From: Gemmatimonas groenlandica
GTDB taxonomy: Bacteria; Gemmatimonadota; Gemmatimonadetes; Gemmatimonadales; Gemmatimonadaceae
Direction of reading: 5' to 3'
Length of the DNA: 64,000 bases
Assembly (NCBI RefSeq): GCF_013004105.1
Contig: NZ_CP053085.1
Span: 2,604,001-2,668,000 of the forward strand
Position numbers and translations under genes: made by a program. Positions 17,956 to 36,476 of this stretch are shown one piece after another (the first letter of the stretch is position 1; every line of letters begins with the position of its first letter). The notes under the pieces are model-generated. The model made no database searches, was not told the DNA's origin, and worked only from the letters and a program-made list of their open reading frames with translations.

Positions 17956-18420
17956 ATCCCCTTCGCGGCCTTGCTGTGGCGGCGAACGTCGGCACGCCGC
18001 GCGCGGTCGGCGCGCCCGCCACAGAGGGCCGCTCAGTGGACCCACGCCCCTCGCGGGGCTTGAGGGAAGCAGCGCGGCACCAGCGCCCTTCACGGAGGCT
18101 GAGCAATTCCACGGGACCGGCAACATCCACGCCCCAGACCGCGATGAGCCCCCAATCGCCCGTGGTGCGCGGGTGCCACTCCCCATCCGCCGCGCGACGT
18201 CGTCACACCAGGGGATGGGAGATCCCGTCGCGAGCTTTTCGGTCGTCACACCGTACCGTGCGCGGCGCACGGAGCCGTTCCGTGCCGTGCCCTGCCCCGT
18301 CGCCACGCCGAGGCGAGCGGCTGCCGGGCCGGGCGTCCCGTGAGCGGCCCTCTGTGGCGGGCGCACGAACGCTGCGCGGCGTACCAGCGTTCGCCGCCAC
18401 AGCAAGGCCGCGAAGGGGAT
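17956..18420. repeat. 85-bp inverted repeat pair in a 0.7 kb non-coding stretch
   Basis: Two 85-bp arms, 17956-18040 and 18336-18420, are inverted copies matching at 74 of 85 positions without gaps; the outer 30 bp and 20 bp near the inner end are identical, with the changes clustered in the middle. They are separated by 295 bp. The whole stretch 17846-18560 between the gcvH and gcvP stops shows no convincing gene: open frames in it lack ribosome sites and exist because of high GC. The arms look like two copies of a dispersed intergenic repeat in opposite orientation. A short tandem of CCCACAG units lies at about 18475-18495. Confidence 0.8.
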
Positions 18421-32090: not shown

Positions 32091-32822
32091 CTAGCTGGAA
32101 GCCCGCCACCGCGTGTCGTCGCGCACCTGGCGCATCAGACGTTCGGGCGTGTGCACGTTGGGGAACAGCAAGCGGTCGCTCACGCGGTTGAGAGCCACCC
32201 GCAACCGCGGAAAGCGATCGGCCGCGGCAGCGAAGAGTGGGGTCAGACCATGCTCACCCGCCAGCCGATGGTCGGCGGCCAGTCGAAAGCCCCGCTGTCC
32301 CATCGTTTCAAAATACTCCAGATCCGGTCCGCCTCGGCGCCAGCGCCGCTGTTCGATGTGATCGGGAAAGAGTCCGCTGAGCCACAACGCATAATTGCCC
32401 AGATGCGCTCTGGCCAGAAAGCTCCTCGACGCGTCCCCGCTCTCCAGATCGTTGCCGAGTGAGGCGAGGGTGTCGTAGGTCGCGTCGTCGTGCTCGGCGA
32501 TCTGCCTCGCCCGCTGCCGCAGTCCGAAGTGAAGCAGGATCGAGGCCACGTAGTCGGCGATAGGGCGATCATCTTCGCCGGCGGTTCGAAGGGCGTGCCG
32601 GACCAGCACATAGGTGAACAGCGGCCAGGATGCGTGGGCGCCTTGCCGTGCGCTCAGGAGCCCCTCGAGTAGCCGCGGATCATCCAGCAGTGCATCGAGT
32701 CCCTCATCGGCCAACCTGGCCTCGGCGTCGTCCTGCGCACGGCCGGAACCGCGCGAAACGAGCCGAACCACCAGTTGAGCGTCTTCGCGCCCCAGCCGAG
32801 CGCGTGTGTTCGCGAGAATCAT
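32091..32822 (-). CDS. Protein of unknown function
   Basis: 243 residues, largely alpha-helical, Arg/Leu/Ala-rich, cytosolic by appearance. No metal-binding, nucleotide-binding or membrane motif is visible. It lies 54 bp upstream of the coiled-coil gene on the same strand and diverges from the glycosyltransferase. The promoter region of both is the 141 bp between their starts, which contains TTATTATC at about 32897. Confidence 0.65.
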   Translation of the reverse strand: MILANTRARLGREDAQLVVRLVSRGSGRAQDDAEARLADEGLDALLDDPRLLEGLLSARQGAHASWPLFTYVLVRHALRTAGEDDRPIADYVASILLHFGLRQRARQIAEHDDATYDTLASLGNDLESGDASRSFLARAHLGNYALWLSGLFPDHIEQRRWRRGGPDLEYFETMGQRGFRLAADHRLAGEHGLTPLFAAAADRFPRLRVALNRVSDRLLFPNVHTPERLMRQVRDDTRWRASS

Positions 32823-32963
32823 GGCGTGTCCTCCCAGATTTCACGTACCCCGATCTCCCCTCGCCGGAAACGCTCCGCCGGAGGCCTCTCTCTGTTATTA
32901 TCGGACGCACCCCAGTACGCCAGCGTTTTTTGGGCTGGCTCGCGCGTCCCGTTACCGGCTCCT

Positions 32964-34898
32964 GTGCTCTACCTCGCCATTCCCGCACACAATGAGGTCG
33001 CCACCATCGGCGTCCTGCTTTGGCGGATCCGCACCGTCCTCGCTGAATTTCCTCGCGAGTACGAAGTCGTCGTGTACGATGACGCGAGCTCCGACGAAAC
33101 GGCGGAGGTGGCGGAGCAGTACGCGCACGCGATGCCGGTCACCGTGATCCGCGGCACGGCGCACGTCGGCTACGCCGGCGCCCTCGATGCGCTGATCCGG
33201 CACGTATCCGCGCAGACGCGCTATCCGCGTCGCGACGCGATGCTGTTGGTGCAGGGTGATTTCACCGATCCGCCGGGTATCGTGCCCGAGTTCGCCCGTC
33301 GTTTCGAGGGCGGTGCCGACCTCGTGGTTGGGGAGCGGATGGTGGTCGCCGACGCGCCGGTGCCGGTCCGCCGCTTGTTCAAAGCGGCGCATTGGGCCAT
33401 GCGTCCGTTCGTGCGGGTCGACGGGGTGAATGACCTCACCGCCTCGATGCGCCTGATCCGGATTTCCGCGCTGCGTGATCTCGTGCGTCAGGCCGGCGCC
33501 GAGCCGATTTGTGTCGGTGATTCGTGGACGGCAAACGCCGATCTGCTGCTCAAGCTCGTCCCGCTGGCCCGTCGGGTGGAATCCGTACCGATGGAGCCGA
33601 CCTACGGCGTGCGCATGCGTGATACACGCCGCGTGGCCGTGCGCGATGCCCTCGCCGCCCTCAAATGGGCCTGGGGAGCGCGCGGCCGACGTGCCGTGGC
33701 TGGATCGGCCGCGGAAACGTCGGGCGACACGGAACGCCGTCCGGCCCGCGGAGGCGCACCCGCCGGCAAGCGACGCGAAGAGACCGAACTCTCGGTCGAA
33801 AAGCTGCGTGAGCGTGTACGTGACCGGCCGCGTATCGAGGACGAGGAGTCGTTCAACGGCCGGCGCGAAGGTCGGCGTCGCGAGCGTGAACGGGCGAAGG
33901 GCGAGCGTCCTGCCGAGGAACAGGGAGACGCGCCGTCCGCTGTTGTCGCGGAGCGCGTCGTGGAGCGCGTCGTGGAGCGCGCGCCGTCCGCTGTTGTCGC
34001 GGAGCGCGTCGTGGAGCGCGCGCCGGAGCGGCCGGTGACCGAATCGCGGCCGCCGCGCGCCGAGCGCCCGGAGCGCCCCAAGCGCCCGCGTGGCGAGACG
34101 GCCGACGGCGAGGCCAAGCCAGCGCGCCCCGAGCGTCTGCCGCGAGGCGAGCGTCCGGCAAAAAGCGACGCCCCGCGACCGCCACGGCGCGGGCGTGAGG
34201 AATCGCGCTCGCCGTATAGCGATCCATCAATCGAGCTCGAGGATCCGTTCGCGGCTCCCTCGGCGAAGCGCGATGGACCCGATCGCGCGCTCGAGCGTGC
34301 CCTTGGACCCGTCGATGCGAGCGAGCCGACCACCGGCTCGCGGACGTCCGACAGCGAGACGCCGTACGCTGAACGCAGCGCCATGCCGCCTGCCGTCGAT
34401 CGTCGCGATGATGATGGCGACGACGGCCGCGAGGTCGATGGTGACTTGGGCGAGCGCACCGAAGGTGCGGAGAGTGCCGAGGGTGAAGACGGCGCCGCGC
34501 CGCGCAAGAAGCGCCGGCGTAACCGCCGGTCGCGTCGCGGACGCGCCAAGACGGACGGCACGGCCAATGATGACACCTCCGAGGAAGGCGAGGCCGACGC
34601 CGACTCCTCAAGCGAGTCCGGCGCCATCGACGCGGACCTTCCCGTGGCGGGAGCTCCGCCCCGTTCCCGCAGTCGTGCCCCGAAAGCTGACGCGGACGAG
34701 GGTGAGAGCGACGAGGAGGCCAGCGGTGCGCTGGCCGAGGTCGACGGCGACGAATCGGACCTCGATAGCGCGGCACGCGCGCGGCGGCGTGGACGCCGCG
34801 GACGGCGCGGCGGGGCGCGACGGTCACGCGGGCGTCGCGACAAGGACGGCGGAGAGGGTGGCGGCGCTGATGCCGGCGGCGCTGACGCGGAAGGCTGA
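32964..34898 (+). CDS. GT2 glycosyltransferase with a long charged disordered tail
   Basis: About 644 residues. Residues 1-250 are a family 2 glycosyltransferase of the polyprenyl-phosphate sugar transferase kind: YLAIPAHNEVATIGVL, VVYDDASSDET, LLVQGDFTDPPG and a GDSWTANADLLLKL segment. The following 390 residues are disordered: alternating Arg/Glu tracts, then acidic blocks (DDDGDDG, EEGEADADSSSE) and basic RGR blocks (RRRNRRSRRGR, RRRGRRGRRGGARR). The tail contains two identical 39-bp units. The GTG at 32964 was chosen because the conserved fold starts at once; an in-frame extension to 32775 has no support. No membrane anchor is seen. Confidence 0.85.
   Translation: MLYLAIPAHNEVATIGVLLWRIRTVLAEFPREYEVVVYDDASSDETAEVAEQYAHAMPVTVIRGTAHVGYAGALDALIRHVSAQTRYPRRDAMLLVQGDFTDPPGIVPEFARRFEGGADLVVGERMVVADAPVPVRRLFKAAHWAMRPFVRVDGVNDLTASMRLIRISALRDLVRQAGAEPICVGDSWTANADLLLKLVPLARRVESVPMEPTYGVRMRDTRRVAVRDALAALKWAWGARGRRAVAGSAAETSGDTERRPARGGAPAGKRREETELSVEKLRERVRDRPRIEDEESFNGRREGRRRERERAKGERPAEEQGDAPSAVVAERVVERVVERAPSAVVAERVVERAPERPVTESRPPRAERPERPKRPRGETADGEAKPARPERLPRGERPAKSDAPRPPRRGREESRSPYSDPSIELEDPFAAPSAKRDGPDRALERALGPVDASEPTTGSRTSDSETPYAERSAMPPAVDRRDDDGDDGREVDGDLGERTEGAESAEGEDGAAPRKKRRRNRRSRRGRAKTDGTANDDTSEEGEADADSSSESGAIDADLPVAGAPPRSRSRAPKADADEGESDEEASGALAEVDGDESDLDSAARARRRGRRGRRGGARRSRGRRDKDGGEGGGADAGGADAEG
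33930..34019 (+). repeat. Duplicated 39-bp unit in the glycosyltransferase tail
   Basis: Two identical 39-bp copies, 33930-33968 and 33981-34019, separated by a 12-bp piece that repeats the end of the unit. They encode APSAVVAERVVER twice, in frame, and suggest recent slippage or unequal crossover in the disordered tail. Confidence 0.85.
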
Positions 34899-34956
34899 GC
34901 AACACGCACAGCGCAAGCGCCGAGCTCAGAGCTCAGACAGTCAGGCTCAGGGATCA

Positions 34957-35112
34957 GACTTTTTATAGCGGTCGGACTTCAGCAACAGCAGTCCACAGTA
35001 TCGAGGCGTTTGGTTCAGTGTTGAGTGGGCGCGATACATCCGACCGCGCACTCCATCAAACGCCTCGCGACTGTGGACTGTCGTTGCTCGACTCCGAACA
35101 CTATAAAAAGTC
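34957..35112. repeat. 156-bp imperfect palindrome (MITE-like or structured RNA)
   Basis: Two 64-nt arms, 34957-35020 and 35049-35112, pair at 52 of 64 positions with no gap, enclosing a 28-nt loop. The outermost 12 bp (GACTTTTTATAG and its complement) match perfectly and are AT-rich against a very GC-rich background. Weak symmetry continues about 20 bp outward on each side, into CTCAG-rich sequence. The element fills most of the 272-bp gap between the GT2 gene and the small membrane protein gene and contains no ORF worth calling. It could be a miniature inverted-repeat element or a transcribed hairpin. Confidence 0.8.
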
Positions 35113-35170
35113 TCAAGCCAGAACTCAGAAAACTGAGCACTGATCCGCCCAATCCGTCGGGTCCGCCCGC

Positions 35171-35386
35171 CTATCCCCGGATCGCGCGTTCGATCCGCTC
35201 CGCCGTGGCCGGGCTCACTACCCGGATCACGAAGTAGATCACGGCGCCGATCAGGACGACGCGGATCGCGAAGCCCAGCAGCATGAACAAGAGCCCAACC
35301 AGCGGCCCCAGCAGCCCGAAGACCAACTTCAGGGCGACCAGGCCAAGCATGGCGATCAGGCCGACGGTAAACAGGGTACGGAGCAT
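35171..35386 (-). CDS. Small membrane protein
   Basis: 71 residues with two hydrophobic helices (LFTVGLIAMLGLVALKLVFG and LGFAIRVVLIGAVIYFVIRVV) and a short basic tail TAERIERAIRG. No family assigned. Codon choice and a clean start divergent from lipA support a real gene. The long palindrome sits directly behind its stop. Confidence 0.65.
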   Translation of the reverse strand: MLRTLFTVGLIAMLGLVALKLVFGLLGPLVGLLFMLLGFAIRVVLIGAVIYFVIRVVSPATAERIERAIRG

Positions 35387-35567: not shown

Positions 35568-36476
35568 ATGGCCGAGCAGTTGGTTCAGATTATGGGACGC
35601 CACCGCCGCGAAGCGCTCCCCGAGCGTAAGCCATCGTGGCTCAAGGTGAAGGCCCCTGGAGGCGCAAACTATGTGCGTCTCAAGCAGATGATGCAGGAAC
35701 TCGACCTGCATACCGTCTGCCAGGAGGCCCACTGCCCCAACATCGGCGAATGCTGGGAACACGGCACCGCCACCTTCATGATTCTCGGTGACGTCTGCAC
35801 GCGCAACTGCGCCTATTGCGCCGTCTCCCACGGACGTCCGCCCAAGTACGACATCGAGGAACCGTCGCGAGTCGGTCAGGCGATCGCCGAGCTGAATCTG
35901 CGGCATGCGGTCATTACCTCGGTCGATCGTGACGATCTCCCCGACTTCGGCGCGTTTATCTTCGCCGAAACGATTCGTCAGATCCATCAGCGCCTGCCCG
36001 GCTGCTCGATTGAAGTGCTCGTGCCCGATTTTCAGGGCAACGAAGACTCAATCCGCACCGTGCTCGAGGCGCGACCCGACATCTACAACCACAATACGGA
36101 AACGGTGCCGCGCCTCTACAAGAAGGCGCGCCCCGGCGGTCGCTACGAGCGGCTGCTGGAAATTTTCCGGATCGCCAAGCGTATCGCCCCCGATATCCCC
36201 ACCAAGACCGGCATCATTCTGGGTCTCGGCGAGACCAACGAAGAAGTCGTCGAGGTCATGAAGGAGCTCCGTTCCGTCGACGTCGACATTCTCACGCTCG
36301 GCCAGTACCTCCGCCCCTCCGACGGACACATCGCGCTCGATCGCTATGTCACGCCCGAGGAGTTCCGCGAGCTGTACCTGGTCGGTATGCAACTCGGCTT
36401 CAAGCATGTCGAAAGTGGCCCGCTCGTGCGCTCCAGTTACCACGCGTGGGAGCAGGTGCAGGCCGCCGGCGTCTGA
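35568..36476 (+). CDS. lipA: Lipoyl synthase
   Basis: Radical SAM enzyme inserting two sulfurs into the octanoyl chain on E2 and GcvH. 302 residues. Both iron-sulfur sites are intact: auxiliary cluster CQEAHCPNIGEC (Cys51, 56, 62) and radical SAM CTRNCAYC (Cys77, 81, 84). The closing RSSYHAWEQ segment typical of LipA is present. It lies 47 bp ahead of pdhA, probably in the same transcript. The 181 bp upstream, shared with the divergent small membrane protein, should hold its promoter. Confidence 0.97.
   Translation: MAEQLVQIMGRHRREALPERKPSWLKVKAPGGANYVRLKQMMQELDLHTVCQEAHCPNIGECWEHGTATFMILGDVCTRNCAYCAVSHGRPPKYDIEEPSRVGQAIAELNLRHAVITSVDRDDLPDFGAFIFAETIRQIHQRLPGCSIEVLVPDFQGNEDSIRTVLEARPDIYNHNTETVPRLYKKARPGGRYERLLEIFRIAKRIAPDIPTKTGIILGLGETNEEVVEVMKELRSVDVDILTLGQYLRPSDGHIALDRYVTPEEFRELYLVGMQLGFKHVESGPLVRSSYHAWEQVQAAGV

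What the first reader, a model, noticed from the sequence alone, without database searches (positions are those of the whole stretch)
34957..35112. Long AT-tipped palindrome: candidate MITE or structured RNA
64-nt arms pair at 52 of 64 with a perfect 12-bp tip ending in a T5/A5 block, which is unusual in such GC-rich sequence. Weak symmetry extends outward. Several paired changes in the arms suggest the fold is kept. It could be a miniature transposable element, a convergent terminator or a regulatory RNA at the 3' end of the small membrane protein gene.
Basis: partly seen in the sequence, partly recalled or inferred. Interest (0 to 1): 0.62.

Follow-up and report, generated by a model that had tools for sequence, protein, structure and literature searches.

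The report
Satellite hairpin of a ribosomal-intron-protein element
The long palindrome is one of many gene-less copies of a hairpin repeat whose full-length form carries the gene for the little-understood '23S rRNA intervening-sequence protein', which suggests that this protein comes with, and may spread, its own family of small DNA repeats.

Summary
The palindrome is real: 52 of 64 arm positions pair, against at most 38 elsewhere in the window. It is not unique. The same arms occur at 11 sites in this 5.18 Mb Gemmatimonas-like genome and in close relatives. [quoted passage not shown] It has one stop in this genome and is intact at the same site in four relatives, dN/dS 0.08-0.15. The pattern is general: in the genus 33 of 38 testable IVP genes lie inside long inverted repeats, against 0 of 600 random positions, with arms on a 7-nt period. 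All four such IVP families in this genome have gene-less satellites, 60 sites in all. No Y1 transposase or reverse transcriptase was found in it. The finding is best read as a non-autonomous satellite of an IVP hairpin element, arranged like REP/RAYT. That IVP spreads the satellites is inferred, not shown. The T5/A5 tip is a private variant; no intrinsic terminator was found.

The parts
   Evidence: the repeat finder; 52 of 64 pairs; homologous arm at 11 own-genome sites
35021..35048 (.). loop (28 nt); copies elsewhere have loops of about 0 to 117 nt, or about 440 nt when the IVP gene is inside
35049..35122 (-). right arm of the palindrome
34957..34968 (+). outer end of the stem, T5 block; a private variant of the family consensus GACTGGGTATAG
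35101..35112 (-). matching outer end, A5 block, shared with the orthologous sites of relatives
34924..34946 (+). left outer flank made of degenerate TCAG-type 7-nt units; boundary not sharp
   Evidence: sequence; period-7 signal in arms of IVP elements
35123..35145 (-). right outer flank of degenerate CTGA-type units; boundary not sharp
   Evidence: sequence
32775..34898 (+). upstream gene whose stop codon lies 48 nt before the left arm (looks like a glycosyltransferase with an R/E-rich tail; name recalled, not tested; start uncertain)
35171..35386 (-). 71-aa small membrane protein gene, convergent with the upstream gene
35568..36476 (+). lipoyl-synthase-like gene used as anchor to find the orthologous site (name recalled)

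Best explanation
[quoted passage not shown] Shown: it is one of 11 dispersed sites with these arms in this genome; one site carries the IVP gene between the same arms; the core of the present copy is closer to copies at another site than to copies at its own orthologous site, so sequence has been copied between sites; other IVP families in the same genome have their own satellites. Inferred: the IVP pentamer recognises the arm, as RNA or single-stranded DNA and perhaps through the 7-nt phasing, and with host enzymes lets the hairpin be copied into gaps behind genes, in trans for copies without the gene, much as RAYT serves REP/REPIN repeats. Once in place, the hairpin becomes the 3' end of one or both neighbouring transcripts, where it may block read-through, protect mRNA ends or be cut by RNase III as rRNA IVS hairpins are. 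Likelihoods: satellite of an IVP family 0.88; past movement or copying between sites 0.75; IVP as the factor acting in trans 0.45; present effect on transcript ends 0.4.
For: Same arms at 11 own sites. Site E2 (C1:2497243-2497563) has PF05635 between those arms with one in-frame TAG; intact genes at the orthologous site in G020, G024, G042 and G045, dN/dS 0.08-0.15 among these four. The protein matches PF05635 at 81 bits and PDB 2gsc. In the genus 33 of 38 testable IVP loci lie inside an inverted repeat of 36 bits or more, against 0 of 600 random positions. Arm periodicity at lags 7 and 14, z about 12-16. Three further IVP families in the same genome have gene-less satellites: 29, 13 and 8 sites. 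The present copy is 81-90% identical to copies at the 5,141 kb site in own and relatives, but 73-75% to four of five relatives' copies at its own site (81% over 111 columns for the shortened G015 copy). No PF01797 and no PF00078 in the own genome. On one Azospirillum plasmid an IVP with 7-nt-phased arms sits inside a real 23S rRNA gene.
Against: No insertion of the gene-bearing form at a new place was seen: all 42 arm-similar pairs of IVP loci share flanks, that is, they are orthologous. No clean target-site duplication was found; the one precise empty site (E5 in G044) could be a deletion, since G020, G042, G015 and G024 have E5. Copying between sites could be ordinary gene conversion. Five of 38 IVP loci have no inverted repeat of 36 bits. 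The IVP gene of this very family is broken in this genome. Three relatives with many satellites (G014, G015, G017) gave no IVP at this site, but their assemblies are 70-82% complete. Covariation inside the family is weak.
Confidence: 0.6

Rival explanations
1. The palindromes are older repeats, spread by something else, and IVP genes are guests that settle in hairpin loops, as IVSs settle in 23S rRNA hairpins.
For: IVSs replace rRNA hairpin loops (PMC4990558 introduction). Gene-bearing loci are single and vertically inherited. In L280 the IVP sits within a 23S rRNA gene.
Against: Four unrelated arm families in one genome each have one IVP gene inside, and 33 of 38 IVP genes of the genus lie in inverted repeats, with arms mostly 70-200 nt upstream and 30-150 nt downstream of the matched part. 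Guests in random hairpins would not be expected to carry 7-nt-phased arms into rRNA.
Confidence: 0.2
2. A classical MITE: a deletion derivative of a DNA transposon that cuts and pastes with a transposase in trans.
For: Inverted repeats, small size, several copies, gene-bearing relative.
Against: The only gene found between these arms is an IVP; no target-site duplication was shown; arms have no sharp ends and grade into 7-nt units. A transposon now lost cannot be excluded.
Confidence: 0.08
3. REP/BIME-type repeat moved by a RAYT (Y1 tyrosine transposase).
For: Intergenic palindromes behind genes, with one single-copy gene flanked by the same repeat.
Against: PF01797 has 0 matches in the own genome and is in 8 of 30 genomes of the genus. 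The stem is 60-75 bp, not the 20-40 bp of REPs (size from the abstract of PMC3733652, listing).
Confidence: 0.03
4. A conserved bidirectional terminator or 3'-UTR structure kept by selection, not a repeat with a spread of its own.
For: It lies between convergent stop codons, and relatives without it have other hairpins at this place, for example a strong one in G011/L074 and a short one of TCAG/CTGA words in G045/L068.
Against: It is multi-copy; no terminator match in 34800-35300. A terminator role could still be a by-product.
Confidence: 0.09

Closest known systems
23S rRNA intervening sequences (IVS) with S23p/IVP gene (Coxiella, Leptospira)
   Same: Stem of complementary ends around a PF05635 gene; heptameric repeats upstream of the gene are reported for the Coxiella IVS (PMC4990558, passages)
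   Different: Here the elements lie between protein genes, not in rRNA genes; gene-less copies form dispersed families, 9-30 sites per family in one genome counting the gene-bearing one
REP/REPIN with RAYT
   Same: One vertically kept gene flanked by the repeat, plus many gene-less dispersed palindromes in intergenic space (REP side recalled and from listings)
   Different: The gene is IVP, not a Y1 transposase; no Y1 match in this genome; stems longer, 7-nt phased
Heptameric intergenic repeats: TAACTGA of Beggiatoaceae (PMC4679880), GGGAATC of Xanthomonas and GGGGA(C/T)T of Nostoc (PMC4692102)
   Same: 7-nt units in intergenic DNA, in Xanthomonas often as inverted pairs (70 cases in Xcc; passages)
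   Different: S23 and 'four helix' have 0 occurrences in the main text of both papers; here the arms flank IVP genes or match arms that do
MITEs, e.g. QMITE2 of Coxiella (PMC5896051)
   Same: Small palindromic repeats near 3' ends of genes (abstract passage)
   Different: No transposase parent or target-site duplication shown here
Avd of diversity-generating retroelements
   Same: Fold relative of PF05635 according to PMC10053308 (passage)
   Different: No PF00078 reverse transcriptase in this genome

Membership tests
23S rRNA IVS | complementary ends that form a long stem | tested here: met
23S rRNA IVS | inserted in an rRNA gene | tested here: not met
   lies between two protein-coding genes; Rfam gathering search of the window found nothing
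23S rRNA IVS | may encode IVP/S23p between the arms | tested here: met
   not in this copy; in family member E2 (broken) and in L218, L221, L223, L226
23S rRNA IVS | excised from the transcript by RNase III | not testable with these tools
   needs RNA
REP/RAYT | Y1 (RAYT) transposase gene flanked by the repeat | tested here: not met
   0 PF01797 matches in own genome
REP/RAYT | dispersed intergenic palindromes plus one single-copy linked gene | tested here: met
   the linked gene is IVP
MITE | parent transposon with transposase and the same ends | tested here: not met
   none seen in own genome: between matched arms lies only the IVP gene or a short loop
MITE | target-site duplication | tested here: inconclusive
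   arms grade into 7-nt units; the single empty site E5/G044 shows none
intrinsic terminator | GC-rich hairpin followed by a U run | tested here: not met
   0 matches in 34800-35300 on either strand
DGR/Avd retroelement | reverse transcriptase gene | tested here: not met
   0 PF00078 in own genome, 3 of 30 in genus

The most novel reading that the evidence does not exclude
IVP proteins are the trans-acting propagation factors of a widespread class of hairpin mobile elements that need neither a known transposase nor a reverse transcriptase. 23S rRNA intervening sequences, intergenic 'four helix bundle protein' genes, 7-nt intergenic repeat arrays and long palindromes such as this one are all forms of that one class, with gene-less satellites depending on IVP as REPs depend on RAYT.
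Probability: 0.3. Interest if true: 0.88.

Novelty: new variant of a known kind. Interest (0 to 1): 0.62.

Why it matters
IVP/S23 proteins and rRNA intervening sequences have been known for decades, with no known role for the protein and with their mobility only guessed (PMC4990558 introduction and discussion). Finding that intergenic IVP genes sit in 7-nt-phased inverted repeats and have families of gene-less satellites in the same genome gives the protein a likely nucleic-acid partner. It also turns the question of how these elements spread into a direct test: does IVP bind these arms, and are satellites gained or lost with it?

Tried and rejected
Rfam: no match in the window or in seven sampled own-genome loci. 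AT-tip as a functional mark: rejected, because it is private to this copy. RAYT and reverse transcriptase as movers: none in the own genome. IVP on phages: no match in 50,697 records by tblastn. IVP genes on plasmids: 12 of 72,556 records matched. Of the 12, 8 have an inverted repeat of 42.8 bits or more (7 cyanobacterial, two of them near-identical copies in one strain, and 1 Azospirillum), above all 110 control positions (maximum 41.9); of the other four, one scored 28.3 and three 15.7-19.3. A notebook entry of mine says 9 of 12; 8 is right. A mobile gene-bearing unit: not supported within the genus, since 42 of 42 arm-similar pairs share flanks. A second long palindrome in the window (17956-18420) was checked as a possible relative; it is single-copy and unrelated. 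Papers: ten searches listed no paper that joins intergenic IVP genes with inverted-repeat satellites; the library holds open-licence papers only, and most listings were truncated. Rows left out before counts: the five weakest hits (E above 1), two hits and one were not clustered; one search left out 3 of 41 IVP loci with a short flank; 41 of the 110 PF05635 matches were examined.

Full report
OBSERVATION. The palindrome at 34957-35112 is as described: 52 of 64 arm positions are Watson-Crick pairs, 57 with G-U; the next best 64-nt inverted repeat in the window (spacer 0-60) has 38, and five shuffled windows peak at 35-37. The fold of 34940-35130 is -95.3 kcal/mol on one strand (z -10.1) and -103.5 on the other (z -11.4), with 0 of 200 shuffles as good. 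Repeat search extends the arms to 34947-35020 and 35049-35122. It lies between the stop codon of a + strand gene (34898) and that of a 71-aa membrane protein gene on the - strand (35171).

IT IS A REPEAT. The window is C1:2604001-2668000 of a 5,179,092-bp one-contig genome. Close relatives are Gemmatimonas and Gemmatimonadaceae MAGs; the species name (I recall G. groenlandica by size) was not tested. The element matches 28 stretches in this genome at E up to 10, which cluster into 11 sites (the five weakest hits, E above 1, were left out). In a search of 41 genomes (own, 24 of the same genus, 16 of the order) 7 have a match; besides the own genome these are G014, G015, G017, G020 and G024, and G007 with one 30-nt match only. 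A later search of ten chosen relatives also shows arm matches in G042, G044 and G045, while the matches of G011 (2) and G010 (3) lay outside the arm columns. By a simple ORF picker, the 11 own sites lie just behind stop codons: 7 between convergent genes, 4 between tandem genes, none between divergent genes.

ANATOMY OF THE FAMILY. Thirty-four gene-less copies were aligned. The stem base consensus is GACTGGGTATAG...CTATACCCAGTC; the T5/A5 version is specific to this copy (left TTTTT in 1 of 34). At the orthologous site the five relatives have left GGG against right AAAAA, so only the own left arm has come to match its right arm. In register, 86% of cells pair over 30 columns, against 26-34% when slid by 1-3; 16 cells are double changes, but RNAalifold finds just 1 compensated pair in 19. 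Pairing is kept, largely by sequence identity. Loops vary from about 0 to 117 nt in gene-less copies.

THE GENE-BEARING COPY. At C1:2497.0-2497.7 kb the same arms (145 nt, 82% complementary, 444 nt apart) enclose a reading frame of family PF05635, 23S rRNA-intervening-sequence protein (IVP), with one in-frame TAG. At the orthologous site G020, G024, G042 and G045 have an intact gene between the same arms. dN/dS is 0.08-0.15 among these four and 0.11-0.31 in the four pairs with the own, broken copy. The intact protein matches PF05635 with 81.4 bits (cut-off 33.8) and PDB 2gsc, XCC0516, E 6e-7, a homopentamer of four-helix bundles according to PMC4990558 (introduction).

GENERALITY. PF05635 occurs in 28 of 30 genomes of the genus, 110 matches by the per-genome table, and in 0 of 14 control genomes. 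I examined 41 of the 110. Of 38 with at least 300 nt on both sides, 33 have an inverted repeat of 36 bits or more across the gene (31 have 46 or more); 600 random positions in DNA of the same genus gave none (maximum 29.2). In 120 mismatched flank pairs most scores were below 25, but one reached 58.1. The arms differ wholly between families but share a period: autocorrelation at lag 7 is 0.38 on both sides against 0.27 in 400 control pieces (z about 15), at lag 14 z 12-16, at lag 16 z 8-12. On plasmids, 8 of 12 records with an IVP-like reading frame have such repeats above all 110 controls, 7 of them cyanobacterial; of the other four, one scores 28.3 and three show none. The eighth, on an Azospirillum plasmid, lies inside a 23S rRNA gene (Rfam LSU match) with 7-nt-phased arms.

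SATELLITES OF OTHER IVP FAMILIES. Searching the own genome with the three other IVP elements that have arms gave 30, 14 and 9 sites, each including the gene-bearing one (clustered); with the present family, 64 sites, of which 60 lack the gene. Ten sampled satellite loci were folded: several are near-perfect hairpins of about 130 nt, others are single arms or tandem 16-nt arrays. A fifth IVP gene in the genome (1978 kb) has no clear arms.

MOVEMENT. The core of the present copy is 81-90% identical to copies at the 5,141-kb site (own, G014, G015, G024, G017) but 73-75% to copies at its own site in G014, G042, G024 and G017 (81% over only 111 columns with the shortened G015 copy). Sequence has thus passed between sites, by new insertion or by conversion. 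Among close relatives G045 and G011 have no element of this family at this site; G045 has a short hairpin of TCAG/CTGA words there, G011 and more distant species have other strong hairpins. E5 is absent from G044, with stop codon next to stop codon, while G020, G042, G015 and G024 have it. Against mobility of the gene-bearing form: all 42 pairs of IVP loci with similar arms also share flanks. The arrangement, one vertically inherited gene with many dispersed gene-less repeats, is that of RAYT and REP; but the own genome has no Y1 transposase (PF01797; 8 of 30 genomes of the genus have one) and no PF00078 reverse transcriptase (3 of 30).

READING. I take the finding to be a satellite of an IVP hairpin element (0.88). 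I think it most likely that IVP acts on the arm in trans (0.45, inferred) and that the hairpin, sitting behind genes, shapes transcript ends (0.4, inferred; no terminator match). Shown, inferred and refuting results are given in the fields.

LITERATURE. PMC4990558 (abstract, introduction, discussion, passages) describes the Coxiella IVS with S23p, RNase III excision and heptameric repeats, and says function and origin remain unclear. PMC4692102 and PMC4679880 (passages) describe 7-nt intergenic repeats and do not contain the term S23. PMC3936711 (passages) reports 18 IVP genes in cas loci. PMC11270868 (passages) finds IVP in rRNA insertions of CPR bacteria. PMC10053308 (passages) notes Avd homology. 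PMC5896051 (abstract start and passages) describes Coxiella MITEs. PMC3116915, PMC2817692 and PMC3733652 (REPIN, RAYT, REP) were seen as search listings only. None of what I saw joins intergenic IVP genes with satellite repeats; the searches are named in Tried and rejected.

Noticed in passing
window 17956-18420: A second, longer inverted repeat: 95-nt arms, 85% complementary, 275 nt apart, very stable fold; single copy in the genome.
   Followed up: partly
L036:2940-3192: This copy of the family encloses a typical GC-rich terminator hairpin (GGGCCCTGTCGA..TCGACAGGGCCC, then a T run) in its loop.
   Followed up: no
L038:6960-7138: Everted copy: right arm followed by left arm, with outer ends in the middle; the same arrangement is seen in relatives (L272, L247, L251, L253).
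   Followed up: no
L283, L308: On Anabaena and Pseudanabaena plasmids an IVP gene with repeats lies between cas6 and cas4; PMC3936711 counts IVP as cas-associated, but insertion of an element between genes would explain it too.
   Followed up: partly
L279: Nostoc plasmid: IVP gene between the two ribonucleotide reductase subunit genes, on the other strand, flanked by inverted GTAGGGA heptad arrays.
   Followed up: partly
window 33920-34040: The upstream gene has internal near-identical repeats (AERVVERVVERAPSAVVAERVVERAP) in its charged tail.
   Followed up: no
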